Assembly (NCBI RefSeq): GCF_963576675.1 | Contig: NC_088916.1 | Location: forward strand, 83,345,501 to 83,409,500 | DNA: 64,000 bases | Reading direction: 5' to 3' | DNA from: Euphorbia lathyris | Taxonomy: Eukaryota; Streptophyta; Magnoliopsida; Malpighiales; Euphorbiaceae | Shown: positions 6,273 to 52,724 of the stretch, in pieces | How the letters are laid out: every line of letters starts with the position of its first letter | Numbering within the stretch: the first letter of the stretch is position 1 | Notes under the pieces: model-generated | Seen by the model: only the letters and a program-made list of their open reading frames with translations | Told to the model about the DNA's origin: nothing | Databases searched by the model: none | Made by a program: the position numbers and the translations under genes

Positions 6273-7517
6273 TGAGAATCCAAATAAATGACTAGTTCTT
6301 AATTTTGTGTGGTTCAATATAAAATCAGAATGTTATTCCCTTTGAAGTGGTTTAGTTCTTTAATGATTGGAAGAGAATTAATACAATATTTGTTAAAAAT
6401 AATTTATCAAATAATAATAATAACTTCAATTAAAAATAATATCTTGGTTTTATTACGCATATCCAAATTCCAAAGCCTTTTGGAACATTTGCTCATATCA
6501 CAGTAGTATTTTGCGGCATCTTTCAATGCATATTTGTATCCATAACTTGTACATTTCTGTCTCACATGCTAGCAAACCAATCAAAGCTTGTGGCATATAC
6601 ATTTTATTTTAGAAAAATATTGATATGCTGACAGTTTATGCATGCTAAACCGAGTTTGAATTTTGGCATAAATGAATTGTTACGGGAGGGCTTAATATAT
6701 TGAAAAAAAATCATTAATCAAAGACTTAGTATATCCATTTAAAAAATAGAGACTTAATGTATTTAAAAATAATTAATCAACCGTTTAATTTATAATGACT
6801 TAATGAATAAAAAATAAATTGATCACGACTCAAACATGCAATTTAACCACAGAACTTCGCGGATAACTATAACATGACTTCATTGATTAACTTTTACACA
6901 TTATATAGATGTAAAAAAACAGTTCATAGATATGCATGCTTGTGAAATGATGGACTTCTTGAAGAGGATGTTTTAAAGAGCATATTTTAAAGAATTTTAA
7001 TTCTTCAACTGTTTAGTTTTGATGTAATTTATGCATTGTCTGGTGATTAAAAGAAAGTTAATGTTTACACTTGAGAGAGAAAGCTAAAAAAATAAAAAAT
7101 ACTATTTCATAGTAAATGTGATACTAAAAAATTTTAATTCTTGAAAAAATTCATTTTGAGGTTGTTAATAAATTTTTTAAATCAACCCTTACACAATATA
7201 ATGCAATAAAAGCTAATAATATTAATCAGAAAAATAAAATATGATTAACTACTAATAGGATTCACTTGCAAACACAAATTGAACATCTCATATTTTGACA
7301 TGTCATTTTTATAGAGATAGTAAAATTACACGTGATTTACGAAAACATTACAAAAATCCAATATAATATTATTAATGGGTTAAAATTTGTTAAATAGATT
7401 TAGAATCAAATTTTTGGAAGATGGTGTTAATTTACTTCCTAATACAAAAATAACATTGAAATTTTAAAATTGTCCTTATATATTTTAAAATTTCTATCAC
7501 TAAAAGAGTTTATAATA
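6273..7517. repeat. Segmental direct duplication, copy 1 (~1.24 kb)
   Basis: This segment matches 11691-12934 in the same orientation along its whole length, with about 17-18 differences seen by eye (about 98-99% identity). Homology starts at tgagaatccaaataaatgac and stops sharply after cactaaaagagtttata. It is AT-rich; the 65-codon frame inside each copy has no family resemblance and I do not call it a gene. Copy 2 lies directly upstream of the multi-CLE gene, so copy 1 may be a stray duplicate of that gene's 5' flanking region. Confidence 0.93.
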
Positions 7518-11690: not shown

Positions 11691-12934
11691 TGAGAATCCA
11701 AATAAATGACTATTTCTTAATTTTGTTTGGTTCAATATAAAATTAGAATGTTATTCCCTTTGAAGTGGTTTAGTTCTTTAATGATTGGAAGAGAATTAAT
11801 ACAATATTCGTTAAAAATAATTTATCAAATAATAATAATAACTTCAATTAAAAATAATATCTTGGTTTTATTACGCATATCCAAATTCCAAAGCCTTTTG
11901 GAACATTTGCTGATATCACAGTAGTATTTTGCGGCATCTTTCAATGCATATTTGTATCCATAACTTGTACATTTCTGTCTCACATGCTAGCAAACCAATC
12001 AAAGCTTGTGGCATATACATTTTATTTTAGAAAAATATTGATATGCTCACAGTTTATGCATGCTAAACCGAGTTTGAATTTTTGCCATAAATGAATTGTT
12101 ACGGGAGGGCTTAATATATTGAAAAAAAATCATTAATCAAAGACTTAGTATATCCATTTAAAAAATAGAGACTTAATGTATTTAAAAATAATTAATCAAC
12201 AGTTTAATTTATAACGACTTAATGAATAAAAAATAAATTTATCACGACTCAAACATGCAATTTAACCACAGAACTTCGCGGATAACTATAACATGACTTC
12301 ATTGATTAACTTTTACACATTATATAGATGTAAAAAAACAGTTCATAGATATGCATGCTTGTGAAATGATGGACTTCTTGAAGAGGATGTTTTAAAGAAC
12401 ATATTTTAAAGAATTTTAATTCTTCAACTTTTTAGTTTTGATGTAATTTATGCATTGTCTGGTGATTAAAAGAAAGTTAATGTTTACACTTGAGAGAGAA
12501 AGCTAAAAAAATAAAAAAATATTATTTCATAGTAAATGTGATACTAAAAAATTTTAATTCTTGAAAAAATTCATTTTGAGGTTGTTAATAAATTTTTTAA
12601 ATCAACCCTTACACAATATAATGCAATAAAAGCTAATAATATTAATCAGAAAAATAAAATATGATTAACTATTAATAGGATTCACTCGCAAACACAAATT
12701 GAACATCTCATATTTTGACATGTCATTTTTATAGAGATAGTAAAATTACACGTGATTTACGAAAACATTACAAAAATCCAATATAATATTATTAATGGGT
12801 TAAAATTTGTTAAATAGATTTAGAATCAAATTTTTGGAAGATGGTGTTAATTTACTTCCTAATACAAAAATAACATTGAAATTTTAAAATTGTCCTTATA
12901 TATTTTTAAATTTCTATCACTAAAAGAGTTTATA
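11691..12934. repeat. Segmental direct duplication, copy 2 (~1.24 kb)
   Basis: Near-identical partner of 6273-7517, same orientation, offset 5418 bp. It begins right after the CACTA-type terminus at 11690 and ends about 400 bp upstream of the multi-CLE start codon, so it constitutes the distal 5' flanking region of that gene. Differences between copies are scattered single bases and one or two single-base length changes, which suggests a recent event. Confidence 0.93.
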
Positions 12935-13042: not shown

Positions 13043-13168
13043 TTATCTATGGGTATGATTGTTAGAAAACATGGAAGCCAAATCCAGTGCAAGTGAAAAT
13101 ATTGGTTATCTATGGGTTTGATTGTTAGAAAACATGGAAGCCAAATCCAGTCCAAGTGAAAATATTCG
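13043..13168. repeat. 63-bp tandem repeat (2 copies) upstream of the CLE gene
   Basis: The unit starting ttatctatgggtatgattgt at 13043 is repeated at 13106 with few changes, ending gtgaaaatatt. It lies immediately upstream of the TATA-like box at 13213, so it may modify promoter spacing or duplicate a regulatory site. Minus-strand translation gives a repeated short peptide, but nothing suggests it is expressed. Confidence 0.85.
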
Positions 13169-13212
13169 TTTGGGTTCAAGGGATCAAATCTCCTCTGACC
13201 CAAGTTGCTAAA

Positions 13213-13219: not shown

Positions 13220-13332
13220 CTCAAATTCTGTATACTTGCAATTCATGGTTTTATATCAGATCCTCTAAGATTTTCAGTGTTTGTATATATATCCCTCTAA
13301 TTGGATATCTTAATGCAATACACTTATCCAGT

Positions 13333-14052
13333 ATGATTTTATCAACAATAGGAGCTATGATGCTCATTCTTCTTCATGCTCTAACTGTGCAAGTTTCTAA
13401 TGCAAATCCTTCTCTTCAATTGCCTCAAGTTTGCCGTCACTCTTTCAATCAAGTTCCTGGCGGACCAGATCCAATTCATAACCCACCCAAACTCATTACA
13501 GCTCAACATCAACCGTCAACCCGAGTTTATGGTCATTCTTTTAGACAAGTTCCTGGCGGACCAGACCCAATTCATCACCGACCCCAACTCATTACAGCTG
13601 ATCATCAACAGTCAACCCGAGTTTATGGTCATTCTTTTAGAGAAGTTCCTGGCGGACCAGACCCAATTCATCACCCAACCCAACTCATTACCGATGATCA
13701 TCAACAGTCATCCCGAGTTTATGGTCATTCTTTTAGACTATCTCCTGGTGGACCAGACCCAATTCATCACCCATCCCAACTCATTACTGCTGATCATGAA
13801 CAGTCAAGCCGAGTTTATGGTCATTCTTTTAGACTATCTCCTGGTGGACCTGACCCAATTCATCACAGCCGTCATTCTCTCAGAAGAACCCCTGGCAGAC
13901 CAAACCCAATTCATAACCCCGGACCTGGAGAACCACCCCAGCTCCCGACAAACAGTCATTCTTTGAGAGAAACTCCTGGGGCACAAAACCCAATTCATAA
14001 CCCTAGACCTGGATCACCACCTGAACATATCTCGACTGAACATCAATATTAA
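13333..14052 (+). CDS. Secreted precursor with seven CLE-peptide motifs
   Basis: A 239-residue single-exon protein. Residues 1-24 form a signal peptide (hydrophobic core MMLILLHAL, cleavage plausible after VSNA). Seven CLE-type dodecapeptides follow at residues 39-50, 71-82, 103-114, 135-146, 167-178, 184-195 and 212-223. Examples are RQVPGGPDPIHH, REVPGGPDPIHH and RLSPGGPDPIHH (twice). The first has N at position 1. The last two are diverged (RRTPGRPNPIHN, RETPGAQNPIHN). Motifs 1-5 lie in 32-residue (96-bp) repeats with spacer LITADHQQSTRVYGHSF. CLE peptides are processed, hydroxylated extracellular ligands of CLV1/BAM-type receptor kinases controlling meristems, vasculature or nodulation. 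Most precursors hold one motif. The RLSPGGPDPxHH form resembles Arabidopsis CLE1-CLE7. The ATG at 13333 is chosen because the signal peptide starts there; the frame is open further upstream but with no better start. Confidence 0.92.
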   Translation: MILSTIGAMMLILLHALTVQVSNANPSLQLPQVCRHSFNQVPGGPDPIHNPPKLITAQHQPSTRVYGHSFRQVPGGPDPIHHRPQLITADHQQSTRVYGHSFREVPGGPDPIHHPTQLITDDHQQSSRVYGHSFRLSPGGPDPIHHPSQLITADHEQSSRVYGHSFRLSPGGPDPIHHSRHSLRRTPGRPNPIHNPGPGEPPQLPTNSHSLRETPGAQNPIHNPRPGSPPEHISTEHQY

Positions 14053-21800: not shown

Positions 21801-23201
21801 TTACTTATTCTTTCTTAATTGCAGACTTCTTTCAGAGTACTTAGGAGTAGAGACAATGCTAGGAATTGTTTGCAGGACTTATGAAGGTGTTAAAGCTCTT
21901 GAAACTTATGACAAGGAAGGCCATATAAATAGTGATTCTGGAATTCGAGGCTTTGGTACTACTATCGGACGGACTCTGGATGGTCGATTTCTTGTCATTT
22001 GTCTCGAAAATTTAAGGCATGTATCTCTTTCTTTTCTTTATTGCTGTTTGGAATTCAGCTCTTGAATTACAAACTTTTTTTCCCTTGTAGACCTTACTGT
22101 GGTGAATTTGTGGATGATGACCCTCAAAGAAGGCTTGATCTTCTACAGCCAAAATTGCCTAATGGCGAGTGCCCACCTGGATTTATTGGTTTCGCTGTTA
22201 ACATGATCCATGTGGATTACATGAATTTGTTGTATGTATCTGATGTCTATGGCCTCAGAGAGACTCTATTTTACAGCCTCTTTTCTCACCTGCAAGTTTA
22301 TAAAAGTAGGGATGGAGGGATTATTAAGATTAATGGTTTCTTTTCCTTGGGGAATGGGTAAGTATTTTGCTTTCATTATTGACATGAAATTGTCTTCCAA
22401 TTGGATCTAATGGTGAATTTCATTTGTTTACAACATCTCCTTTTGTGGTATTTGGGAATTTTCTTTCTGCATGTAGGTAGTTTAAATGCACTAAGAAAGA
22501 AATGTCTTTCTGAATCATGATACATTGTAGAATTATGTATGTGCTATAATTCGATTATAATAGGCCACCTATACGGTTCATAGTGTTAGCCTATGACCTT
22601 CCAAATTCAACTCATGATATTTGGTGCATGGATTTTTCTTCCCCCAATTTTTGTACAACTATCATACAAAAGAAAAGAAATAACTATTTTGTCTAGAATG
22701 GTCGATTCAAAGGGTGAGCCTTGGCGCAACGGTAAACATTATTGTTGTTGTGTGACCGAGAGGTCACGGGTTCAAGTTGCATGTGTGTGTGTGAGCGCGT
22801 GTTATGTGTGTATTTCTCATTTGGTATCTCTTCTTTCTGGATTTTTTTTTGTTCCCCAGGACTGATGTTGATGTAAGATTTCCAAAACCTTCCATGTCAG
22901 CAAATCCACCTGATAGCAACATGGAAACTGAGAATCAACTCAAACAGAAGACATGGGAAAAGGAGAAGTTGACAGAGGATTTAAAGCGAGAGCAAATGCT
23001 ATTGAATTCTGCAAGATTCAATTTGGAGAGAAAGAAGGAAGAGTTTGTTAAGTTTCTCTCACAAACCTCTGCAAACACACCTCAGGTATTGCACTGAACA
23101 CATCTTAATTGAGTTGGATTGGAGTTGTATTTTGCAGATTTCAACAGCATTTGCTCTCGCTTCAGATGCAGGGAGGACAGGATAGGTTCAACCCTAGATG
23201 A
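18819..23201 (+). CDS. DMS3: DMS3, SMC-hinge-like protein of RNA-directed DNA methylation
   Basis: Seven coding exons: 18819-18905, 19132-19246, 21275-21512, 21825-22016, 22091-22357, 22860-23085 and 23166-23201. The phases agree and give 386 residues (Arabidopsis DMS3 is about 420). Landmarks are [15 protein letters not shown] (N-terminal coiled coil), [69 protein letters not shown] and [18 protein letters not shown], then a C-terminal coiled coil ending [14 protein letters not shown]3 joins DRD1 and RDM1 in the DDR complex that loads RNA polymerase V for RNA-directed DNA methylation in the nucleus. Intron 22017-22090 has a GC donor (ttaag/gcatgt). A conserved stretch of about 15 residues between QVYK.R and DGGII is missing. 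The 2-kb second intron contains an LTR element and the fifth a SINE. The last exon is short and less certain; reading through the donor would end the protein at 23097 instead. Confidence 0.93.
19598..21110 (+). mobile_element. Short LTR retroelement (chromovirus-derived) in DMS3 intron
   Basis: Two direct LTRs, 19598-20039 and 20689-about 21110, start tgttgt(g/a)gctagtc. They share phrases such as 'ttatttaggaag', 'gtctgccttttgtact' and 'catttgaaaaacaaattcag'. They are visibly diverged. Just after the 5' LTR comes tggtattagagc, a tRNA-Met-type primer-binding site. The 650-bp interior keeps only decayed gag: [15 protein letters not shown] near 20262-20310 and a damaged zinc-knuckle region (GLCYNYD, then GHQYKR) near 20490. 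There is no pol, so it is a non-autonomous deletion derivative, sense to DMS3. The target duplication is no longer clear. Confidence 0.82.
22707..22800 (+). mobile_element. tRNA-derived SINE (Au-like), truncated
   Basis: The sequence ggtgagccttggcgcaacgg followed by taa is an RNA polymerase III A box in SINE form. About 30 bp further, gaggtcacgggttcaagt is the B box. The wording resembles the Au SINE family of flowering plants. The 3' part is replaced by a tgtgtgtg-type tract. It lies in the DMS3 intron between 22358 and 22859. Confidence 0.75.
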
Positions 23202-24038: not shown

Positions 24039-24698
24039 TTATAAATCTAGTCTTGTCACTTCAACAGCTATCATCTTTTGCATTAAATTGAGCAAGCATT
24101 TCTCCTCCTGTTCCTCTTTCTCAACGTCTCCGCCTTCTTCTCCTCCCTTCTCCGCCACAGCAGTTCCCAGAACCAACCCATCCCCCGGTGGACACAAAGT
24201 CCACACTGTCTCAGGCACCCTACTGAAACAACTATAATCCGTTCCTACACCCAAACACAGCCTCTTCGCTCCCGAATCAGACCTAGACTCAGATGAAATG
24301 TCAAGACTCATCTTCTTGACAGTCAAGTTAGACTTGGATGATGCAGACAAGAACTCGGCCTGGCGTTTTCTCTGCAAAGTAGATTTCCAACGATTTTTAA
24401 TGGCATTATCAGTCCGGCCAGGCAAGAGTCCAGCAATTGTGGCCCATTTATTACCGTGAATAGCGTGAGCTTGAACAATGGTATCATCCTCCTTTGTAGT
24501 AAAAGGTCTGTGCTGAACCTCTCGCGAGAGTTGATTAAGCCACCGTAACGGGCATGATTTTCTTGAGCGGCCATGAATTCCGGTGCTTATGAAAGTCCAA
24601 TTTCTGGGGCCGTGTTGTTTAACTAGCTTGATTAAAGTATCATCTTCTTGAGGACTCCATGGGCCTTTGATACAATCTCCACCATTGAAAGAAGCCAT
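24039..24698 (-). CDS. R2R3-MYB transcription factor, MYB44/MYB73 type
   Basis: A single-exon 219-residue protein. R2 spans about residues 11-57 (W14, W34, W53) and R3 about 63-108 (F66, W85, W104). Motifs GPWSPQEDD, HGPRNWTFIS, FTTKEDDTIVQAHA, HGNKWATIAGLLPGRTDNAI and STLQRKR match subgroup 22 (AtMYB44/70/73/77), which is also intronless. The C-terminus LLNLMQKMIAVEV resembles the subgroup's MQ.MI..EV tail. Such factors act in the nucleus in abscisic-acid, stress and auxin responses. Two unusual residues lie in recognition helices: P50 (SCPLRW, where the family has R) and R103 (KNRW, usually KNHW). Length is below the 250-320 usual for the subgroup. The start is fixed by the MYB domain lying 11 residues in and by a TATA box 93 bp upstream. 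Confidence 0.93.
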   Translation of the reverse strand: MASFNGGDCIKGPWSPQEDDTLIKLVKQHGPRNWTFISTGIHGRSRKSCPLRWLNQLSREVQHRPFTTKEDDTIVQAHAIHGNKWATIAGLLPGRTDNAIKNRWKSTLQRKRQAEFLSASSKSNLTVKKMSLDISSESRSDSGAKRLCLGVGTDYSCFSRVPETVWTLCPPGDGLVLGTAVAEKGGEEGGDVEKEEQEEKCLLNLMQKMIAVEVTRLDL

Positions 24699-24790
24699 GA
24701 ATAGAAAAGTGAGAAGAAATAGGGGAAAGAAAGAACTATTTTTTCTTCTGGTGGAGACGATATAAAGTTTGATTAAGCTATTCTCCCCTC

Positions 24791-24800
24791 CTTTTTATAC
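24791..24800 (-). promoter_or_regulatory. TATA box of the MYB gene
   Basis: On the minus strand gtataaaaag lies about 93-102 bp upstream of the MYB ATG (24698). It is a strong match to the plant TATA consensus at the expected distance. Confidence 0.65.
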
Positions 24801-25154: not shown

Positions 25155-27168
25155 GATTTAGGCATATTAATTTATTTATTTAGACTTTAATCATACGATT
25201 AGATTAAGTGATCTCTCAGGTATTCCTCTTACTGATTCTCTTGGGAAGTATCTGGGCGTTCCCCTCCACAGTGAGCGTGTGTCTAAAGGCTCCTTCAAAG
25301 AGACTTTGGATAAAGCTAATTCGACGTGTGCCACTTGGAAAGCCAAGACTCTGTCTCTCGCTGGCCGCCTCACGTTAATTCAATCTGTTAATTGTGCTGC
25401 TCCCAATCACATCATGCAGACTTGTAAGCTTCCGAATCCTGTGCTTAATGATCTTGACAACATTAACAGTAGGTTCCTGTGGGGGGAAGCTGCGGAGGGC
25501 AGGAAGATCCATCTTATGCCTTGGAGTGAGGTTTGCCAGCCTAAAGATTCTGGAGGTCTGGGTATTAGGAAAGCAAAGGACAATAATAAAGTTTTATTAA
25601 TGAAACTCCTTTGGCGTATGTGGCAAAACCCCTCCTCTCTTTGGGTTCGCCTCCTTTGTGGTAAGTATCGGAAAGACAAAATCTTCAGGGGTCCGAAAGA
25701 GAGAGTTGCTAATTGTTCCTTCCTCTGGAAAGGACTTAGTGTTGTGTTTGATGAGTTCTGCTCAGGAGTTGGCCTGGAGGTGGGGAATGGTAAGTCCATT
25801 AGTTTCTTGTTTGATAACTAGATTGGGGATAAACCGTTAATTGAGGTGTGTTCTTCCCCCCCGCCTAGTGATATACGCAACTGGAGGATTGCCAATGTGG
25901 TTGAGTCGGAAGGGGACTGGATCTGGTCAAAGTTTGATACTTTCTTTAGCCTTGAGACTCTCCTTAGAATGCGGGGAGTGAAGGTGAGTAATCAAGAGGA
26001 AGACTTGGATAGGCACTGCTGGGCGCTGACTAACAATGGAGTTTATTCTTACAAATCGGCCTTTGAAGCTTTCTCTCTCTTTAGATCTGATCCTCCCTCG
26101 GATGTGTGGAAGTCGATTTGGACCCTTAAAGTTCCTTTCCGTATTAGGAGTTTCCTGTGGCTGGGCGTTAAGGACAGGCTTCTTACTAATTCGGATAGGC
26201 ACAGAAGGCACTTGGCTGATTCTGGAGCTTGTAGTAGATGCAGAGGCCATGTTGAGACTTTGTGCCATGCTCTTAGAGATTGCTCTAATAGTAAAGAGGT
26301 TTGGAGGAAAATTCTACCACACCATATTTTCTCTTCCTTCATGGCACATTCTGAGGTCGACTGGTTCTCTGATGGTGTTAGAGGAAAGTTGCTTCCATAC
26401 ATGGAGCATGGTGACATTTTCTTTGCTATTATCTGTCACCAAGTTTGGAAATGGAGAAACGAGGAGATTTTTGGAGATAAAACTGCTTTTATGACAAACT
26501 TAGCTGATTTCTTCTCGAAAAAACTTTTCTCTATTATCGATAGTTTCAAAGGAGAGTCCCTTGCCAGAGCCTCTCAGTGTTGTGATGTCCATCTCGTGGG
26601 ATGGAGCAGGCCAAGAGAGGGGGTTGTGAAGCTGAATACTGATGGTTCCTGCCTCAGTAACGGTAAGATTACGGCTGGAGGTGTGCTTAGAGATGCAGGG
26701 GGCGCCTGGCTTTCTGGGTTCTCCCAGAATTTAGGGTTGGGTTCTTCCTTTTCTGCGGAGCTCTGGGCTATTCTTACTGGAATCAATCTTGCTAAAAGGC
26801 TGGGTGTTAAGAGGCTCTCTGTGGAGTCTGATAATTTGGAAGCAATCAAAATGATTTCTGAGAATCATTCTATGGGTCTTCACAGTCGCAACCTCATCAA
26901 AGCTATTAAAAGGCTTTGCTCCTCCTTTGAGTTCGTAGAGTTCAGACACATTTTTAGAGAGCAGAATCGTGTTGCTGATCGCTTGGCGGCGACGGGCCAT
27001 GAAGGGACGTTAGGCGTTACTACCCTTCCGGTTTCCCCTAGTTTCATCTCTCCTCTTCTCTTAGAAGATAGAATTGGGGTTAGCTTCCCTAGGCTAATTC
27101 TTGGGTAGTTTGTTGTTGTTCGTTTTTCTTTTCCTTTTCTACCAAAAAAAAAGATTTAGGCATATTAA
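25155..27168 (+). mobile_element. 5'-truncated L1-type LINE with target-site duplication
   Basis: A 16-bp duplication, gatttaggcatattaa, flanks the element at 25155-25170 and 27153-27168. The 3' end is a short poly(A) tract (ccaaaaaaaaa) directly before the right copy. The 5' end is truncated within the reverse transcriptase gene at 25207. Between the left duplication copy and the LINE lie 36 bp (25171-25206) that repeat the flanking sequence 25124-25159 with one mismatch, apparently filler copied at integration. Confidence 0.9.
25207..27108 (+). pseudogene. LINE ORF2 C-terminal half: RT end, zinc-binding, RNase H
   Basis: Open from the truncation point to 27108 apart from one in-frame TAG at 25819, where LINE proteins usually have the tryptophan of a DNW motif. 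The N-terminal part (KYLGVPLHSERV, LSLAGRLTLIQSV, FLWGEAAEGRKIH, GGLGIR) is the C-terminal RT segment. The middle (PFRIRSFLWLGVKDRLLT, CSRCRGHVETLCHALRDC) is the zinc-binding RT-associated domain. The end is an RNase H domain of the plant RVT_3 type (LNTDGS, GGVLRDAGG, SAELWAI, VESDNLEAI, FREQNRVADRLA) with D, E and D residues retained. No promoter or 5' half is present, so it is not an active gene. Confidence 0.92.
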
Positions 27169-33025: not shown

Positions 33026-34689
33026 AATTTCATTCTTATTCTTTCCATGTGGAATTCTCACAACACTAATATTAAAGACTAATATACATCAGCTTGTTGA
33101 TCCTATTGGATTACATAGGATTTTGTGTAACTTAACTGTTAACTGATTTGTACCTGATGAATATTCGTTAAACTGATCAACAAAAAAGTGATGGTGCAGT
33201 AGCTTGGCTCATTAGACCATGTGGGCTCGGGTAGCACCACCTTGTATTCCTTCCACTTCTAGGAGTAGGAGGTTGTCGCTGCTTTGTGAAGCCAGCCTAG
33301 CGCGGTGCCCTCCACTCTAGGAACCAAGTCATCTCAACCTTGGTCATGGTTAAACTCTCAGCTTGGAATGGACCAGCCAGATGTTAGTTGCATGAGCCTG
33401 GAATTTTGAGCCATAGTAATGTTCCATCACTTTGTTGCCCCCCATTTGGGTCACAAGCTTATGCTACCAAGCTCGGCGATGTAAGTTGTTATTCTTAAAA
33501 CTAATAAGCTATTTAAGGTTGTTCTAATCCAACAAAGTGAGATTTGATTTAGTAGAAAATTTGACAAATTAAATTAAATTACATCAGGCTAAAAGTGTTA
33601 AATATGACATATAGAGATTTAAATGATAACTTATATCTAATATATACAAACCAAACTATATATGGTATGCTTAATTTTTTTTTTGTTTCAGAAAATAACA
33701 TAAGATTTATTTGTAATAGTCGTTTAACCTAATTTTGATGTATACTATTACTATGTATCCTCATTTTTAAGATATTCAAAACATGATGCCAAATAAAGTA
33801 GTATGTGGACTTATATCCACACGATGTATACTATATATCATGTTTTTAAAATGATGCAATAATTGTAACGCCAAATAGAAAATTATGGATTCACCATAAT
33901 TTGAAATGCCAAATTGTATACTCATGAGATCATTAATTAATATGTAAATGGACATTTAAAAATGTATAACTAGATATTGAGCACTAATTGATGGAAGAAT
34001 CAAACCATGTCAATCCTAATGTCATTTTGGTTGGCTTTTTATGTGTCATGGAACCGATTGAACTAAAAGTGTATGCAAATACCCACTGGGCTTCCAACGT
34101 GTACCATACAGATCCAACACACCATTAGTTTTTTAATTTCCCAAAAGCTCAAGCCGCTCTGACATTATGCATTTGCTTAATTAGTGGCTTTATTTACAAG
34201 CATACCAACCTTTGAAACTTATTATTGCTTGTGTTGTGCAAGCTATATATATTAGATAAAGAATCATAGGCCAGCAGGCCAACAGTTGGATCAAGGGAGA
34301 CCTTGACGTGCTGCTTTTTTTACCACAAGTTCTTTTTCCCTTTCCTTGCATTTTTCTTTTTCCTCTCATTGTTTGTGTATAATATTCGTAAATATCACAA
34401 TAATAATAATAATAATAACTCAATATGACAAAATTTTCAAAGTTCATCTGCTAAAAAAACAAAAACAAAATTACAAATTTCTATAGAGTACAATTAAAAA
34501 TATATATGAATTAGGAAGTGAAGATTGTAGCAGGTAAACAATCATAACTAGGCGCTTTTTGCTTGTGAATTGAGAACCTCTATAAAAAAAATTGAAATGA
34601 ACCTCTTGTTTCTTTTGGAAACCTAAGTACATTGTATACTTTAATATTAAAAAAATTAAGTAGTTTGATACTGAAATTGTTTAGGGTCT
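33026..34689. other. Non-coding spacer, no gene seen
   Basis: No gene. 33225-33480 is less AT-rich than its surroundings (for example cagcctagcgcggtgccctc) and may be a fragment of a repeat I cannot name. An (AAT)n microsatellite lies at about 34400-34420. No copy of the 471-bp LTR at 43516 was found here, although the Tat element should end here. Confidence 0.45.
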
Positions 34690-37853: not shown

Positions 37854-40800
37854 CTACTCGGACTTTCTATATAGGCGTAGATTCTCTAGATTCCAGGTGC
37901 GCGGGAGCTTCTTTCCGCTCATTTCTTCTATTTCAAAAGTGGCTGGTCCCAGCTTCTTGGATACTTTGTATGGTCCGATCCAGTTGACGCCCAGCTTGCC
38001 TTTGCCATCTCTGGATTGTATTTTATCCGCTTTTTTCAAGACCAAGTCGTTTTCGTTGATTATTACTTTTCGCATTCTTCTGTCATGGTATTTCTTGATT
38101 CTATTGCGGTACATTGCCATTCGCATGTAAGCTTTCTCTCTTCGTTCCTCCACAGAATCCAAAGCATCTCTGATGTTGATAGGATTTTGTGTGTCGCAAT
38201 AATAAATTCTCCGATCTGTGGGCGACTTGATTTCAACAGGTAGGACTGCTTCGGCTCCATAAACTAGCGAGAAAGGTGTTTCGCCTGTTGCTGCCTTTAC
38301 AGAGGTTCTGTATGCCCACAACATATGGGGTATCTCATCCGCCCAACCTGTTTTTTTGTCACCTAGCCGCTTCTTGATGCCTTGAACCATGGCCCTGTTG
38401 GTAACTTCTGTCATACCATTTGATTGGGGATGGTTTACAGAAGAAAAATGATTCTTGATTCCCATGCTTTCGCAGTATGTTTTGAACTTGGCACAGTTGA
38501 ACTGGGTGCCATTGTCGGTTATAAGCTTCTGCGGGATCCCAAATCGCATGATAATGTTCTCTCGTAAGAACTTGATCATTCGCTCAGCTGTTTGTGCGGT
38601 TACTGCCTCCGCTTCTACCCATTTGCTGAAGTGGTCCACTGCAACTATCAAATACTTCCTTTTCTTTGTTGTTTCTGGGAATGGACCCACTATATCAATT
38701 CCCCATGTTGCGAATGGCCACGCCGTCATTATAGTGATTTGTTCAGCTCCGGGAACATGCTTTTCATTCGTATGGATTTGACAGTTGTGACATTCCGCAA
38801 CCATCTTCTGGGAATCTTCCACCACCTTGGGCCAGTAGTATCCCAGCAGTTTGACCTTTCTTGCCAATGCCGCCGAAGCTTCATGCGCGCCACAAATTCC
38901 TCCGTGTAGCTCTCGCAGCACATAGTCTCCTTCATTGCGACTAACGCATTTCAACCATGGACATGTGTACGATTTCCGATACAAAGTTCCATCCCGCATT
39001 GAGTATCGTGCCGACTGCCCAATTATTTTTCTGGCTAAGCTCTTATCAACCGGTAAATCTCCCTGCTCCAGATATTGACGGATTGGCATCCGCCAATCTT
39101 CATCGTCTTCCAGTTCCTCGATGATCATAATCTGATCAACCTCGAATGCTGGTGCCGATTTTATTTCCAAGCTGCATGCTTTTTGACTCCATGGTTCTCT
39201 ACTTGCCGCTGCCTTTGCCAATTCGTCAGCTTTTGCATTTTGGCCTCGCGGAACATGCACCATCTCCCAAACGACTCCCTTGTGTGTTAACTCTTGTGTC
39301 AATCGGCCGACTACCTGATGGTATTTTACGAGCTCCTCCTGTTTCACCAGATAATTTTTTGTGATCTGGTTTATCATGAGTTTGGAATCGTTGTAGATTA
39401 CCACTCTTTCTGGGGTGAGTTCATTGAGCAACTTCAATCCGCATATCATTGCTTCATACTCTGCGGCATTATTGGTAGTTTTGAAAGTTAATTTTGCTGC
39501 ATAGCACAGTCGAATAACCTCCGGGCCCTTGATGACGACTCCTAGCCCAGCTCCGTCTGCAGATAAGGCCCCATCTGTGTACATGCTCCACTCTTCTTTT
39601 TGTGCCTTTGGACATTCATCATCATCCCAGGTGAATTCGTTCACGAAGTCGGCGAGCACTTGGCTCTTTAGCGCTGGTCTTCCTTCATAGCGGATATTGA
39701 ATTCGCCCAGGCGAATTGACCATTCCATCAACCGGCCGGATGCGTCAGGTTTCTGCAGTACCTTTCGCATTGGGATGCCAGTTCTCACAATGATAGTATG
39801 CGCCTGAAAGTATGGTTTCAACCTAGCCGCCGTGGTTATCACTGCGAGGGCCATTTTGTCCAACTTCGAATACCGGAGTTCTGCATCCTTCAGGACTTTG
39901 CTCACGTAGTACACTGGATATTGTTGCCCTTTTTCTTCTCGCACCATCACAGTGCATATCGCCATGCTGGTGAGGGATACATAAAGAAACAAATCTTCTC
40001 CGTCTTCCGGCCTGCTCATTAAGGGCGGATAACATAGTAATCGCTTTATCCCCTCAAATGCTTCTTGACAATCCGGCGTCCATTCAAAGGACTTGGATTT
40101 TTTGATGGCATTGTAGAAAGGTAGACATCGCCTAGTTGAGCATGATATGAATCGCCCTAATGCCACCAACCGCCCGTTCAGTCTCTGTACTTCCCTTATG
40201 TTCCTTGGCGTCTTCATCTCCATTACTGCTTTAACCTTCTCAGGATTCGCCTCAACCCCTTTGCCGCTAACAATGAAACCCAGGAACTTTCCCGCTCTTG
40301 CTCCGAATGTGCATTTCTCTGGGTTCAATTTGAGGCCATATTTGATCAACACTTCTAGGATTTCTTTGATATCCCGCGGGTGGTCTTGCATTTTCTTGCT
40401 TTTGATGATCATGTCATCAACATAGATCGAGAAGTTCTCGCCGGATTTGTCTGAAAATATCTTATTCATCATCCTCTGGTATGTTGCTCCCGCGTTTTTC
40501 AATCCGAAGGGCATCACCTTGAAGCAATAAGTCGCCTGGTGAGTTATGAACGATGTTTTGATTTCATCCGCCTTCTCCATGGGTATCTGATGGTAACTGG
40601 ATTTCACGTCGGTGAATGATAAGGCTTCATATCCTGCAGTTCCATCTACCAATATATCAATGTTAGGAAGCGGATACATATCCTTCGGACATGCCTTGTT
40701 CAGATCTTTGAAGTCGACGCACATTCTGTACGTTCCATTTGGCTTTTTGACTAGCACCACATTGGCTAGCCATTCCGGATAGGTGACTTCTCGAATCGCA

Positions 40801-41522
40801 TCCGCCCTTAGCAAGTCCGCCACTGCTTTTTCAATCGCCTTTTGCCGCTCAGGAGCATGTCCCCTCTTCTTTTGCCGCATTGGGGTTGCCCCTTTGTCTA
40901 CATTCAACCGATGGGTTACTACGTCTGGGCTTATTCCTTTTAGCACTTCATTTGGGGCGGCAAATGCCGACTCACATTGGGTCAATACCTCGATAATGGC
41001 TTTCTTTGTTTCTTCTGAGAGTCCAGCCGCTATCCGCACGTTCTTGTCATTCGAGATGGCAAATAGTTCCGTTTCTCCCAATGCTTCCGCCGGCAGCTTC
41101 TCTTCGACTTTATCCCCCACTTCCGGTTTTGGTTCAAGTGATAATGTATAGGCCTGTTGAGATACAAGTTGATCACCTTCAACTATGACTCGCCCTTGGT
41201 GTGTTGGCAAATGTAAAGTCAAATGCTTCATTGAGATGAGCGACTCCGTCTCCGACAGGAATGGCCGTCCCAGAATTATGTTGTAGGCCAGTGGGAGATC
41301 AACAATTGCGAATTCTAAATCACCTCGCCATTTTAGATTCTTATCGCCCATTTCTGCCTCCAACACCACCTGCCCACTTGTTTGGGAGGATTGACCCCCA
41401 AAACCAGTTACATCCATGAAGGTGTGTTCCACCCGCTGTGTTCCGCCCACTTGTTGAATGCTGTCCGGGTAATGACGTTGCAAGAACTGCCTGTGTCGAT
41501 AAGGACCCGCTTGACGTCCCAT
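37854..41522 (-). CDS. Tat-clade pol polyprotein (PR end, RT, RNase H x2, integrase)
   Basis: A 1222-codon uninterrupted frame. It opens within the protease after a frameshift; the protease motif ILGRPFL is kept here, while the catalytic DTG lies in the previous frame. Reverse transcriptase has YVDD at residues 367-370. The first RNase H is degenerate (FLYVSLTSM, lacking the usual first Asp). The second RNase H has YTDGALSADGAG, NNAAEYEAMICGL, YNDSKLMI and NAKADELAKAA. The integrase zinc site (HGGICGAH, CHNC) precedes the catalytic triad D943, D1003 and E1039, with the expected 35-residue D-E spacing, and SLVYGAEAVLPVE. RT and integrase active sites look intact, but gag and the protease are broken, so the element cannot make a full polyprotein. 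Confidence 0.93.
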   Translation of the reverse strand: MGRQAGPYRHRQFLQRHYPDSIQQVGGTQRVEHTFMDVTGFGGQSSQTSGQVVLEAEMGDKNLKWRGDLEFAIVDLPLAYNIILGRPFLSETESLISMKHLTLHLPTHQGRVIVEGDQLVSQQAYTLSLEPKPEVGDKVEEKLPAEALGETELFAISNDKNVRIAAGLSEETKKAIIEVLTQCESAFAAPNEVLKGISPDVVTHRLNVDKGATPMRQKKRGHAPERQKAIEKAVADLLRADAIREVTYPEWLANVVLVKKPNGTYRMCVDFKDLNKACPKDMYPLPNIDILVDGTAGYEALSFTDVKSSYHQIPMEKADEIKTSFITHQATYCFKVMPFGLKNAGATYQRMMNKIFSDKSGENFSIYVDDMIIKSKKMQDHPRDIKEILEVLIKYGLKLNPEKCTFGARAGKFLGFIVSGKGVEANPEKVKAVMEMKTPRNIREVQRLNGRLVALGRFISCSTRRCLPFYNAIKKSKSFEWTPDCQEAFEGIKRLLCYPPLMSRPEDGEDLFLYVSLTSMAICTVMVREEKGQQYPVYYVSKVLKDAELRYSKLDKMALAVITTAARLKPYFQAHTIIVRTGIPMRKVLQKPDASGRLMEWSIRLGEFNIRYEGRPALKSQVLADFVNEFTWDDDECPKAQKEEWSMYTDGALSADGAGLGVVIKGPEVIRLCYAAKLTFKTTNNAAEYEAMICGLKLLNELTPERVVIYNDSKLMINQITKNYLVKQEELVKYHQVVGRLTQELTHKGVVWEMVHVPRGQNAKADELAKAAASREPWSQKACSLEIKSAPAFEVDQIMIIEELEDDEDWRMPIRQYLEQGDLPVDKSLARKIIGQSARYSMRDGTLYRKSYTCPWLKCVSRNEGDYVLRELHGGICGAHEASAALARKVKLLGYYWPKVVEDSQKMVAECHNCQIHTNEKHVPGAEQITIMTAWPFATWGIDIVGPFPETTKKRKYLIVAVDHFSKWVEAEAVTAQTAERMIKFLRENIIMRFGIPQKLITDNGTQFNCAKFKTYCESMGIKNHFSSVNHPQSNGMTEVTNRAMVQGIKKRLGDKKTGWADEIPHMLWAYRTSVKAATGETPFSLVYGAEAVLPVEIKSPTDRRIYYCDTQNPINIRDALDSVEERREKAYMRMAMYRNRIKKYHDRRMRKVIINENDLVLKKADKIQSRDGKGKLGVNWIGPYKVSKKLGPATFEIEEMSGKKLPRTWNLENLRLYRKSE

Positions 41523-43457
41523 CCTTCAACAGCCATCGTGATCACCAGGGCATCCGCATGTGGCTCCGTGATTCTCGCAAAGGAGTAATTGAGGGCATCC
41601 CCCCTATGTGTGTTGCTCTTTCGCCGTTCACGGCGAGTTCTTTTTGTTGGAGGCTCGTAGATTCCGCCTGCTATCACGTTTATCACCCCTTTCTTCTGCT
41701 TCTTTTCTGGCCGTGTTTCTCCCTCATGCGGGAGCGTTGTTTTCTCATCAGCTGTTTCTTTTCTTACAAATTGACTCAGCTTGCCTCTCTCGATCAGTTT
41801 TTCCATTTCCTTCTTCAGTTCGTAGCAATCATCTGTGTCATGGCCATTCAACCTGTGGAACCTGCAATACTTACTGGGATAGCGCCCCAAACTGGTTCGG
41901 CCTTTCACCTCGGGGAACCGCACATCCTTCTTTAAGGGGCTCTTTTCGATCCAAAGTAACACCTCTTGGCGAGTCGTGTTTAGTGGTGTGTGATGTCCTC
42001 CACCTTGAAAGGGACGATCACCTCTTCGAACAAAATTACTTTTGGACTGGGTCTGACGCCGACTGTCCGAAGTGGTTCTTGCGGCATCTCTTTCTCGCCG
42101 AGTTTGGGCCCTATGTTCCCTGTTGACATCATCCACTTCCATGAATTCCTTTGCTAATCTTCATGAGCTCGGCTACAGTGCGTGGTTTGTTACGGATGAT
42201 TTCTTCCCGCATGCTCCAATCTGTGGTTCCATCCGCCATGATGTTGCGAATACTCACGATATCCGGGTTCTGCAATCGCACCAGGATATCGTTAAAGGCG
42301 ACAACAAATTCCCTTAGGGAATTATAGTTTCTCTATTTGATCTCCTTCAGCCGCCTATCTGTCACATCTGTCGCTTTACAGCCCACGAACTTCGCACAGA
42401 AATCCCGACTATATTGTTGCCAATTGTGAATAGATTCTGTCGGTAAAGATCGAAACCAATCAGATGCCGCACCGCCCAAAGTTGTCGAGAATAACCTGCA
42501 AATTATGCTTTCGCTTGCCCCTGCAACATCCATTAACTCTCGGTAGTTCCTGACATGAGCCTTAGGGTCAGAATTTGGATCCCCATAGTATTTTGGTATG
42601 GCAGGTGCTTTGATTCTGTGATCTGGAATGAATTCTCGCAACGAAGGGGCAAAAGGTGAATCGCTCTGGACCTCTGCTCTCGGCCTAGGCGAGTACCCCA
42701 TTCGCTCCATCATGCTTCGTAATTGATCTTCTAAGTCAATATCGGGTATTCGCCGGACTTCTTCCATCCGCTACTGGTGAATTCTGGGTGGCATCCACCC
42801 GCCCATCGGTGTTGAGACGTGTGCCTGTTGGGGGACTAACCGCTGTCCCGTTATAGGATCAAAGTTCCATGTGTGCTCCCGCCCAGGAGTCATCAACTCT
42901 GAATGTCTGTGAGGAAAAGGTTCCACTTGCTGTTGCGGAAGAGTGCCTTGTACTCCTGGCAACGGTTGGGATGGCTGCCAGGTCGGATGTATCGTCGTAA
43001 TGAGATCTGGGTGCGAGTAGTTGCTCGGGTGGCTGTGTGGGTTTGTGCGACTACTCTGGCCCACTTGATTGGGCTCCTGAGATGGCTGCGGAAGGACAGG
43101 TATGACAGGAATAGTCGGTGATTGCATTGAGATAACCATAGGTTCTTGAGGAGCAGCCGCCACGGCGGTATTGTGTTCGGCGAGGGCCGTTAGTAAATTA
43201 ATCATTCGATCTCCAGCCGCCTGGCTCATGTTCGAAGCCAAGACTTGTCCTGCCATCTGCACAAAATCACTATTGGACATTTCCATCTCAGCTTGCACTT
43301 GGACTTCCAATAAGGGACTCAATTGTCCCGAAGGACCCGATGAGCTAGGCACCACAGGCTGTGCACTTGCAGGTTGCGAATTCGCAATCCGTAGTCCCCT
43401 GGAGTTCATACTGGTTGATCTAGTGGTAACGCCGGTCGTTCGTGATGGTTCTGACAT
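41408..43457 (-). pseudogene. Tat-clade gag and protease N-part, multiply broken
   Basis: Gag starts at ATG 43457 with a low-complexity Gln/Pro-rich N-terminal region. An in-frame TAG near 42770 interrupts it, and it continues at 42767-42336 with the retrotransposon gag core (FIPDHRIKAPAIPKYYGD, AASDWFRSLP, FCAKFVGC). Another in-frame TAG lies near 42335. After a single-base frame change near 42150 the frame 42142-41408 carries a zinc-knuckle-like CRFHRLNGHDTDDCYELK, a basic stretch and the protease active site VLIDTGSSCNVI. A second frame change near 41450 leads into pol. So there are two stops and two frame shifts in about 2 kb. Confidence 0.88.
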
Positions 43458-50348: not shown

Positions 50349-52724
50349 TGGCGGGTCGTGGAGGTCGAGGAAAAGGGTTGTTCAGTCCATCGGTACGTGT
50401 TTAAACTGTTAAAAAAGTTTTTTTTTTTAAATTTTGTCTGGGCGGGCAGAAATGCCCGCCTTTGAACTGTAGGGGCGGGCCTTTTGGCCCGCTAAGGCCA
50501 AAATCCCCGGCCAAAATCCTGGGGATTTTGGCCAGGGCGGGCCGACATCCCGCCCAGGAAAAATCTTGGGATTTTGCCTAATCCTTGGGCAAAATCCCTG
50601 GATTTTGCTCCAGCCGGTCGTTTGGTCCGCTCAGGCAAAATCCGGCAGGGATTTTGCCCCGAAATTACGTATAGGCGGGATGTTTCGCTCGTCCGGAAAA
50701 TATTCTGTTTTTTTATTTTTTAATTTTGTTATACATTGTAGCAGACCTTTGTTTCAGCGGTTGATCGTGAACCAAATAAGCGTGGTGTCACAGCTTCTGC
50801 TCAGAGGACCAAAAAAATAGATAAATTGATGGCAGATGCACAAAGGGCGCACGAGACAGTTCATCAGCCCATGGACGAGGATTACGTTGCCGTAGAGGCT
50901 GATAATGAGTCTTCCGAAGCCGATTCTTCCGATGACGATACTGTCCCAATTCTTCGATCGTCGAAGGCAAGAGGCAGTCGTATTGCTCATTCTGAGTCAT
51001 CTGGTAAATAATTTACATTATTTTTATGTTATTATTACTTGGCTGTCATTGATTAAATGTTATATGTGTGATATAATTGCAGGGAGCAGCAGCAAAAGAT
51101 CCAGGGATGCTGAACAGGATTGGATAGTGACGGATCCTGTCCCAGGTGGACCAGTAGACGGTTCTGTGATTCCTAATTTTTTGGGACATTTTGCTTATAT
51201 GATGTGGAGCGGGCACATGAGGACCCAGCTCAGGGGCCATACTAGGGGGCATTATTGCAAGCAACTGATGAAATGGTACTTGACAGCTAGTCCATAGGTT
51301 AAGAAGCTTATACGAGATTCGAGACTGTCACACCTACCGAGTATCATGTGCCCACACATTGATATGCCCCTGATATGTGCTTTTATCGAGCGTTGGCAGC
51401 CGGATACATCATCATTTCACATGCCCTTCGGTGAGATGACTATTCTGCTACATGATGTGTGGGAGATTTTACGTATACCAGTGGATGGCCAACTTGTGTC
51501 TACTGAAAGTGGAACAGAGCAGTCTAAGTCCGCAGTGATGGAGCTGTTTGGGGTGACTAAGGAGGAGCTGGAGAGTAAGCATTGGAAGGGCGGTGGTGTA
51601 GTTTGCAATTCCATCGTCTCTATGTGTTCCGTAGGTCGGATGTCAGATTCTGAGGCGATCGGGTGGATGTTTTTGTTATTAGGTTCTACTTTGTTTATAG
51701 ACAAGAGTGGCGACCGTATCCGACCCGTATGCTTGATGGAGGTGCAGGATGGGGTAGAGGGCGTGGGTGGATACTCATGGGGCTCAGCTACACTAGCTTA
51801 CCTATACCGACAGCTAGGTATTGCTAGTAGAGGAGATTGTTCACAGATCACAGGATGCCTGACTCTTCTTCAGGCGTGGATATACGAGTATTTCTCGTGT
51901 TTCAGACCTCAGCGAGAGGGATACATCCCCCGACCAGATGATCCACGAGCTCGGATCTGGTCATCGACAAAGCAGCCCAGGACTGATCAGCGGTTGAGAG
52001 AGTTACGTCTTCGTATTGACAGATTGACAGCGTCCGAGGTACATTCATCACTTAATTATATTAGTACTGTATTTATAATTTATTAATTTACTTGTATACG
52101 TATGCAGGTGATGTGGCTCCCGTACGGTCGTGATATAGTAGTCCGCACTCCTATGACTATTTATAGGGGATGGATACAATACCGGGATATAATGGAGCCG
52201 TATATGCCCGATCGATGCCTCCGTAAGTTGGGGTATGTCCAGATCGTGCCCATGCGGATTTTCACGCCCACGAAGGTTGTACGTGATTGGACTAGCTCTC
52301 GGTATAAGTTAGAGCATACAACTGTGGTTGCCCATGATAGTTTGGAATTTTTTCCAGCGTCGTCTACACTTATGATGTTGATATACACTATCGTTGATAC
52401 TCAGTCAGCATGTGATGAGGAGTACATGTCGTGGTACGTTCGATATTCACATCCGCAGGTCTTGCCCGATACGCAGGCACAGCCAGATGATGTTCTCAGT
52501 CGTTCGAACAGTGAGCTTGTAAGTCATTTGGATTGTGGTTGTTAATTTTAAACTAAATGTTAATTAAAATTCTCAATTAATTATTGTTTTTCCAGTGGGT
52601 TACGCGCTTTTCTAGCATCTCTTGTGGTGTGATAGCAGATTTACAACAGATCGATCCGGATAAGTCAGCTGAGTGGATGGATATCCTGGAGCATGCTATG
52701 AGTGATTGGGATCTGGCCAAATGA
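50349..52724 (+). pseudogene. Plant mobile domain (PMD, MAIN-like) gene with one stop
   Basis: Five exons (50349-50393, 50745-51003, 51083-52038, 52108-52518, 52596-52724), all with GT-AG introns and consistent phases, total 600 codons. A TAG at 51295-51297 (codon 173) interrupts exon 3. The N-terminus (MAGRGGRGKG) is basic, and an acidic Ser/Asp-rich stretch follows (SSEADSSDDDTVP). The PMD includes IDMPLICAFIERWQPDTSSF, HMPFGEMTILLHDVWEILRI, WMFLLLGSTLFIDKSGD, YLYRQLGIASRGD and LQAWIYEYF. The domain occurs in retrotransposons, in Mutator-like and CACTA elements, and in host proteins such as MAIN and MAIL1. It ends in WDLAK. Intron 1 is unusually GC-rich and palindromic. Expression could still yield a short or read-through product; as it stands the frame is broken. 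Confidence 0.85.
50440..50700. repeat. GC-rich palindromic cluster in PMD intron 1
   Basis: At least five short inverted repeats occur in 260 bp: ggcgggc/gcccgcc (50441-50460), gggcgggcc/ggcccgc, ggccaaaatcc/ggattttggcc, ggcggg/cccgcc and ggcaaaatcc/gggattttgcc. The elements alternate in orientation. GC content is far above that of the surrounding AT-rich DNA. Function unknown. Confidence 0.85.

What the first reader, a model, noticed from the sequence alone, without database searches (positions are those of the whole stretch)
13333..14052. Multi-CLE precursor: seven CLE peptides in one secreted protein
Seen: signal peptide, then seven 12-residue CLE motifs, five of them in exact 96-bp repeats. 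The repeats encode at least three different peptides (RQVPGGPDPIHH, REVPGGPDPIHH, RLSPGGPDPIHH twice) plus diverged end copies. Known: plant CLE precursors normally carry one motif; multi-motif ones are rare (some rice, legume and other plant genes, and secreted CLE effectors of cyst nematodes). Inference: one gene could deliver several ligands, or a higher dose, to CLV1/BAM-type receptors. The mixture of V- and S-type position-3 residues suggests it spans two signalling specificities. The repeat is still homogeneous at DNA level, implying recent expansion.
Basis: partly seen in the sequence, partly recalled or inferred. Interest (0 to 1): 0.88.

Follow-up and report, generated by a model that had tools for sequence, protein, structure and literature searches.

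The report
Multi-CLE peptide precursor in a spurge
A plant gene, probably from a spurge (Euphorbia), encodes one secreted protein carrying seven copies of a short CLE signalling peptide; precursors of this kind are already known from many plants, so this is a new example and not a new kind of system.

Summary
The observation mostly holds. Window 13333-14052 (+) is an open frame of 239 aa with a hydrophobic leader and seven CLE-like 12-mers; 20,000 shuffles of the protein gave at most 3. Two details fail: the 96-bp repeats are exact in period but not in sequence (four complete units 81-94% identical), and mixed position-3 residues do not show two specificities. The host is a Euphorbia close to or the same as E. 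lathyris (neighbouring MYB73 gene 95% identical). Multi-CLE precursors are documented: MtCLE14 has 7 domains, LjCLE33 has 9 (PMC5570945); 59 in 27 species (PMC8496505, citing Goad 2017). A different one exists in Euphorbia peplus. Evidence that the gene works is mixed: in motifs 1-5 the P4-H11 core changed only synonymously (3 S, 0 N) against 4 S, 18 N elsewhere, but pN/pS is about 1 over whole units and over the 12-mers. Motifs 6-7 lack Gly6 and are probably weak or dead. Verdict: an ordinary new member of a known kind.

The parts
13333..14052 (+). ORF of a multi-CLE pre-propeptide, 239 aa, stop TAA at 14050-14052
13333..13404 (+). putative signal peptide, residues 1-24, predicted cleavage VSNA|NP; no basic residue in the n-region
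   Evidence: hydropathy and -3/-1 rule only; no dedicated predictor available
13447..13482 (+). CLE motif 1 NQVPGGPDPIHN (position 1 is N, not R)
13543..13578 (+). CLE motif 2 RQVPGGPDPIHH
13639..13674 (+). CLE motif 3 REVPGGPDPIHH
13735..13770 (+). CLE motif 4 RLSPGGPDPIHH
13831..13866 (+). CLE motif 5 RLSPGGPDPIHH
13882..13917 (+). diverged CLE motif 6 RRTPGRPNPIHN (Gly6 replaced by Arg)
13966..14001 (+). diverged CLE motif 7 RETPGAQNPIHN (Gly6 replaced by Ala, Pro7 by Gln)
13436..13866 (+). 96-bp tandem array, 4.5 copies, 91% matches
   Evidence: pairwise identities
13871..14021 (+). pair of related 67-nt units (81% identical) holding motifs 6 and 7, spacing 84 bp

Best explanation
This is a plant CLE pre-propeptide gene with seven CLE domains, grown by in-frame tandem duplication of a 96-bp unit (32 aa: 12-aa ligand plus spacer) and a second, more diverged pair of units at the 3' end. 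Shown: ORF, hydrophobic leader, motif anatomy, similarity to other multi-CLE precursors, and synonymous-only change in the P4-H11 core of motifs 1-5. Inferred: the protein enters the secretory pathway; Pro4 and Pro7 are hydroxylated and Hyp7 perhaps arabinosylated; proteases release 12-13-aa peptides around each HSF|R...HH boundary; and up to four distinct canonical or near-canonical peptides (motifs 1-5) act on CLV1/BAM-class receptors. Motifs 6 and 7, without Gly6, are most likely weak or inactive.
For: ORF open over 240 codons, P about 3.5e-9 by composition, and 7 motifs against a shuffle maximum of 3. Leader. Repeat-driven, partial similarity to plant multi-CLE proteins: five hits at E below 1e-3 (Rhamnella 2e-10 over 75% of the query, two of Sesamum alatum, Vitis rotundifolia, one unnamed), and more by profile. 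Core P4-H11 of motifs 1-5: 3 synonymous, 0 nonsynonymous changes, against 4 and 18 elsewhere in the unit, Fisher P 0.015. Same architecture in published precursors (PMC5570945, PMC4526924, PMC2254619; passages). CLE3 acts CLV1/BAM1-dependently (PMC12235424, passages).
Against: No transcript or peptide data; without a transcript an intron that removes some motifs cannot be excluded, as happened with a Medicago gene once counted as multi-CLE (PMC4526924). pN/pS is about 1.0 over whole units, 1.14 over the 12-mers and 2.2 in the spacers, and variable columns fall evenly on the three codon positions (8, 7, 7): outside the core there is no sign of constraint. The core was delimited after seeing the motifs, motifs 6-7 (which do change in the core) were left out, and the test rests on 3 core changes. 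No Pfam CLE family hit, although the library copy seems to lack the model PF27922 that some relatives carry. No orthologue with the same leader and spacers was found, so conservation between species is untested. A short uORF (MQYTYPV, ATG at 13313) overlaps the main start. One published test of multi-motif precursors saw no amplified activity.
Confidence: 0.75

Rival explanations
1. A decaying relic: a once-active multi-CLE gene now drifting, its ORF still open because the duplications are recent.
For: pN/pS about 1.0 over the repeat units and 1.14 over the 12-mers, variable columns even over codon positions; end motifs degenerate at Gly6 and Pro7; 25 inferred changes give a 35% chance of no stop under neutrality, so openness alone is weak evidence; no annotated orthologue found; satellite and retroelement sequence elsewhere in the window.
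Against: Synonymous-only change in the core of five motifs; no frameshifting indel among five units, for which the neutral chance falls from 37% to 2% as the assumed indel rate rises from 0.05 to 0.2 per substitution, with 80% of indels assumed to shift frame; leader in frame.
Confidence: 0.2
2. Only one or two of the motifs yield active ligand and the others are spacers or processing by-products, as supposed for wheat TaCLE26 (a special case of the best explanation, not exclusive of it).
For: PMC6747155 speculates on a single functional CLE in TaCLE26; switchgrass multi-motif precursors gave no amplification; motifs 6-7 lack Gly6.
Against: Motifs 1-5 keep an identical protein core and motifs 2-5 the same preceding residues VYGHSF.
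Confidence: 0.3
3. Foreign DNA, such as a cyst-nematode contig in the assembly.
For: Two Globodera CLE proteins are among the weak hits, E 0.48 and 5.7, and one of them reaches E 2.5e-5 with the plant profile.
Against: The same window carries a MYB73 gene 95% identical to Euphorbia lathyris, a full-length plant SRP RNA, a plant mobile domain and retroelements; Rhamnella scores E 2e-10 with the single sequence.
Confidence: 0.01

Closest known systems
Legume multi-CLE pre-propeptides (MtCLE14, LjCLE32/33/46/47, GmCLE37a/b)
   Same: Leader and six to nine CLE domains; repeats of 24-35 aa, constant within a precursor except LjCLE33; MtCLE14 has seven domains and no predicted intron (PMC5570945; PMC4526924)
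   Different: Another plant order; here motifs 2-5 encode three different peptides, in MtCLE14 domains 2-5 are identical; no orthology shown, sequences not held
Rice and wheat multi-CLE proteins (OsCLE502/506, CLE75/76, TaCLE26, CLE30/31)
   Same: Two to six CLE motifs at intervals of roughly 30 aa after a leader (PMC2254619; PMC6747155)
   Different: Monocot genes with other motif sequences
Euphorbia peplus M5689_024906 (P0168)
   Same: Same genus, leader plus two scored and, by eye, three degenerate CLE-like repeats
   Different: Different leader and spacers and RLVPGGPDPI-type motifs; profile E only 4.6e-3; not an evident orthologue
Rhamnella rubrinervis FNV43_RR13718 (P0002)
   Same: Best hit, 32% identity over 75%; six scored motifs (the first doubtful) with V, S and T at position 3, one with Gly6 lost
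   Different: 177 aa, other spacers

Membership tests
CLE pre-propeptide (CLV3/ESR-related) | N-terminal signal peptide | tested here: met
   hydropathy and -3/-1 rule; heuristic only
CLE pre-propeptide (CLV3/ESR-related) | 12-13-aa CLE motif with R1, P4, G6, P7, D/N8, P9, H11, H/N12 | tested here: met
   five motifs match all seven scored positions (P4 to H/N12), one six and one five; R1 in six of seven
CLE pre-propeptide (CLV3/ESR-related) | curated family model match | tested here: inconclusive
   no CLE hit in the Pfam copy, but P0007, P0008, P0011 and P0015, listed with PF27922, show no such hit either, so that copy seems to lack the model
CLE pre-propeptide (CLV3/ESR-related) | processed, hydroxylated peptide acting on CLV1/BAM-class receptors | not testable with these tools
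   needs peptide mass spectrometry and bioassay
Multi-CLE domain subset | two or more CLE domains in one precursor at regular spacing | tested here: met
   seven domains, first five at 96 bp
Multi-CLE domain subset | transcribed as one mRNA without an intron removing motifs | not testable with these tools
   no expression data
MtCLE14 orthologue group | shared leader and spacer sequence or synteny | not tested
   MtCLE14 sequence not held
Cyst-nematode CLE effector | located in a nematode genome | tested here: not met
   plant neighbours in the same window

The most novel reading that the evidence does not exclude
One precursor releases both canonical CLE agonists (motifs 2-5) and natural Gly6-substituted variants (motifs 6-7) that damp or compete with them, giving a built-in ligand ratio. 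Synthetic CLV3 with Gly6 replaced by Thr gave a clv3-like phenotype and competed with wild-type peptide (Song 2013 as told in PMC4526918, passages). Against it: PMC4526918 itself found Gly6 variants of CLE1/4, CLE7, CLE26, CLE27 and CLE45 inactive, weak or unchanged but not clearly antagonistic, and Gly6 is not a preferred site of departure in the scored multi-CLE motifs (10 of 128; P4 12, P7 16, P9 14, H11 14, H/N12 24, D/N8 2), which looks like ordinary decay.
Probability: 0.05. Interest if true: 0.7.

Novelty: new member of a known kind. Interest (0 to 1): 0.25.

Why it matters
It adds a clear seven-motif precursor from a spurge to a class whose processing is little studied (so said in PMC4526924, PMC6747155 and PMC8496505, passages). 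Because motifs 2-5 encode three distinct peptides with the same core, the gene would be a clean test of whether plants really cut several ligands from one CLE precursor: mass spectrometry could tell the products of individual repeats apart, which the identical repeats of MtCLE14 do not allow.

Tried and rejected
Search of the window's own genome for paralogues: the genome search was busy or unreachable in 7 tries, so copy number in the genome is unknown. Pfam gave only unrelated hits below their cut-offs for this protein (best BTH_I2711-like, E 0.0018). Solved structures: one chance match, E 2.2. Structure prediction was not run: a repeat precursor that I expect to be disordered would give no usable model. 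The first frame tried was off by one base (a wrong translation, two refusals, and a script that printed the wrong frame; its six-frame pattern scan is still valid). Exact string PGGPDPIHH in the paper library: 0 papers, which says little because sequences sit in figures. A search for Euphorbia, CLAVATA3 and CLE peptide gave 473 papers with at least two of the three terms, 12 listed, none with Euphorbia in the title; I did not follow up its mentions of Euphorbia. The 1.24-kb direct repeats upstream were considered as LTRs of a retroelement; they start TG, but by eye I saw no CA end or target duplication, left open.

Papers: PMC5570945, PMC2254619, PMC4526924, PMC6747155, PMC8496505, PMC4526918, PMC6612224, PMC12235424, PMC11756074, PMC7552357: passages found by search words only; PMC7552357, PMC11756074 and PMC6612224 carry no claim here. 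Goad 2017, Song 2013: not seen, cited through those papers. Paper searches: (listings).

Full report
What is there. The + strand of window 13333-14052 holds an open frame of 239 codons plus stop. It starts with MILSTIGAMMLILLHALTVQVSNA, a hydrophobic stretch (best 11-residue mean Kyte-Doolittle 2.33) with a -3/-1-rule cleavage site after residue 24, and then has seven 12-residue CLE-like motifs. Motifs 1 to 5 start exactly 96 bp apart; motif 6 follows motif 5 by 51 bp and motif 7 follows motif 6 by 84 bp. Tandem Repeats Finder reports 4.5 copies of 96 bp at 91% matches. The four complete units are 81 to 94% identical pairwise, so 'exact' applies to the period, not to the letters. In 20,000 shuffles of the protein the number of motif-like windows averaged 0.10 and never exceeded 3, against 7 observed; 240 open codons has probability about 3.5e-9 at the local base composition. 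A six-frame scan with one loose pattern showed no other match that I would call a CLE motif (judged by eye; the pattern needs R or K first and L or I tenth, so it is not exhaustive).

Whose genome. A MYB73-type gene at 24039-24794 on the minus strand is 95% identical over 98% to a Euphorbia lathyris protein; the next named hits are a second E. lathyris protein (69%), E. peplus, Hevea, Jatropha and Ricinus (349 proteins passed, 120 listed). The window therefore comes from a spurge close to or the same as E. lathyris. The listed cluster stands for 9 sequences, so the species stays open. Retroelement ORFs, a plant mobile domain and a full-length plant SRP RNA agree with a plant chromosome and speak against a nematode contig.

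Relatives. A search of about 5.8 billion proteins scored 6695 candidates and gave 21 hits at E up to 10, but only 5 below 1e-3: Rhamnella rubrinervis (2.2e-10), two of Sesamum alatum, Vitis rotundifolia and one unnamed. The rest, weaker, are from Zingiber, Trema, Magnolia, Abrus, Morus, Hibiscus and others, and two Globodera CLE proteins at E 0.48 and 5.7. A profile of 12 proteins (this one and 11 of the 21 hits) gave 47 proteins at E up to 0.01, of which those 11 match by construction; only the 7990 candidates sharing most words were scored. One Globodera protein reaches E 2.5e-5 there. A 172-aa Euphorbia peplus protein (E 4.6e-3) has two scored and, by eye, three degenerate CLE-like repeats but another leader and other spacers. 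I tallied 47 of the 49 distinct proteins from both searches (this protein included; the two nematode hits left out): 42 of 47 have two or more motifs scoring at least 5 of 7 consensus positions. Repeats below that score were not counted. The searches were baited with multi-motif proteins, so this shows that such precursors occur in many angiosperm lineages, not how frequent they are. No protein with the same leader and spacers was found, so no orthologue is established.

Is it working. Taken over whole units, nonsynonymous and synonymous divergence are equal (pN/pS 1.01); it is 1.14 over the 12-mers and 2.17 in the part of the unit after the motif, and the 22 variable columns fall evenly on codon positions (8, 7, 7). 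So the array as a whole shows no constraint. Within motifs 1-5 the core P4 to H11 has 3 synonymous and 0 nonsynonymous changes, while the rest of the unit has 4 and 18 (Fisher P 0.015). The core was delimited after seeing the motifs and the count is small, so I read this as modest evidence that the peptide core has been kept. Absence of stops is weak evidence (35% expected by chance for 25 changes); absence of frameshifts is stronger only if indels are common. Motifs 6 and 7, not in that test, have lost Gly6, and motif 7 also Pro7.

How it would act. By analogy with CLV3 and CLE3 (PMC12235424, passages) the precursor would be secreted, hydroxylated at Pro4 and Pro7, perhaps arabinosylated, cut into 12-13-mers and sensed by CLV1/BAM1. 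All of this is inference here. From recall, RLSPGGPDPIHH differs from Arabidopsis CLE1/3/4 only at position 10, and the RQV/REV forms resemble CLV3 and CLE40. Since CLE3 acts CLV1/BAM1-dependently, as CLV3 does, the V/S difference does not by itself give two specificities; 13 of 42 multi-motif precursors mix V or I with S, T, P or A at position 3 by my rule.

What is known. Oelkers 2008 (PMC2254619) described five multi-CLE proteins and proposed signal amplification; the M. truncatula one was later re-read as MtCLV3, with only one CLE domain translated because of an intron (PMC4526924), a caution that applies here until a transcript is seen. Soybean has GmCLE37a/b with six domains (PMC4526924), M. 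truncatula MtCLE14 with seven, L. japonicus LjCLE32 with eight and LjCLE33 with nine (PMC5570945); wheat TaCLE26 has four (PMC6747155). PMC8496505 cites 59 such proteins in 27 species and found no amplified activity from two switchgrass multi-motif precursors. The present gene is a new member of this kind. What is modestly useful is that its repeats are distinguishable.

Boldest reading not excluded. Motifs 6-7 could be natural Gly6 variants that temper the agonists of motifs 2-5. The tally does not favour it: Gly6 departs in 10 of 128 scored motifs (1 of 42 first, 7 of 44 middle, 2 of 42 last motifs), less often than Pro4 (12), Pro7 (16), Pro9 (14), His11 (14) or H/N12 (24) and more than D/N8 (2). 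PMC4526918 (passages) found Gly6 essential for CLE1, CLE4 and CLE7 activity without antagonism, and variants of CLE26 and CLE45 weak.

Noticed in passing
1-2403: Satellite array, 194-bp unit, 12.4 copies at 98% matches, starting at the window's left end.
   Followed up: no
6273-7514 and 11691-12934: 1.24-kb direct repeats, 98.6% identical, 5.4 kb apart, the second ending 398 bp upstream of the CLE start codon; LTR pair or segmental copy, undecided.
   Followed up: partly
13043-13170: 63-bp tandem duplication (95%) about 160-290 bp upstream of the CLE start.
   Followed up: no
13313-13336: Upstream ORF MQYTYPV whose stop codon overlaps the CLE start codon, downstream of a TATA-like site at 13284.
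   Followed up: partly
33184-33477: Plant SRP RNA, minus strand, full-length model match, 162.5 bits.
   Followed up: no
24039-24794: MYB73-like gene in one ORF, minus strand; its E. lathyris cluster holds 9 sequences, which may mean a MYB73 expansion.
   Followed up: partly
21936-22361: Exon-like ORF that I recall as resembling the DMS3/GMI1 family; no Pfam hit at E 0.001.
   Followed up: no
37857-41525, 57729-60662, 25822-27105, 51298-52083: Ty3-type pol ORFs, an ORF with zf-RVT and RNase H-like domains (LINE-like, by recall) and a plant mobile domain ORF.
   Followed up: no
P0015: Hibiscus cannabinus protein with four CLE motifs fused to an NTP_transferase domain, probably a gene-model fusion.
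   Followed up: no
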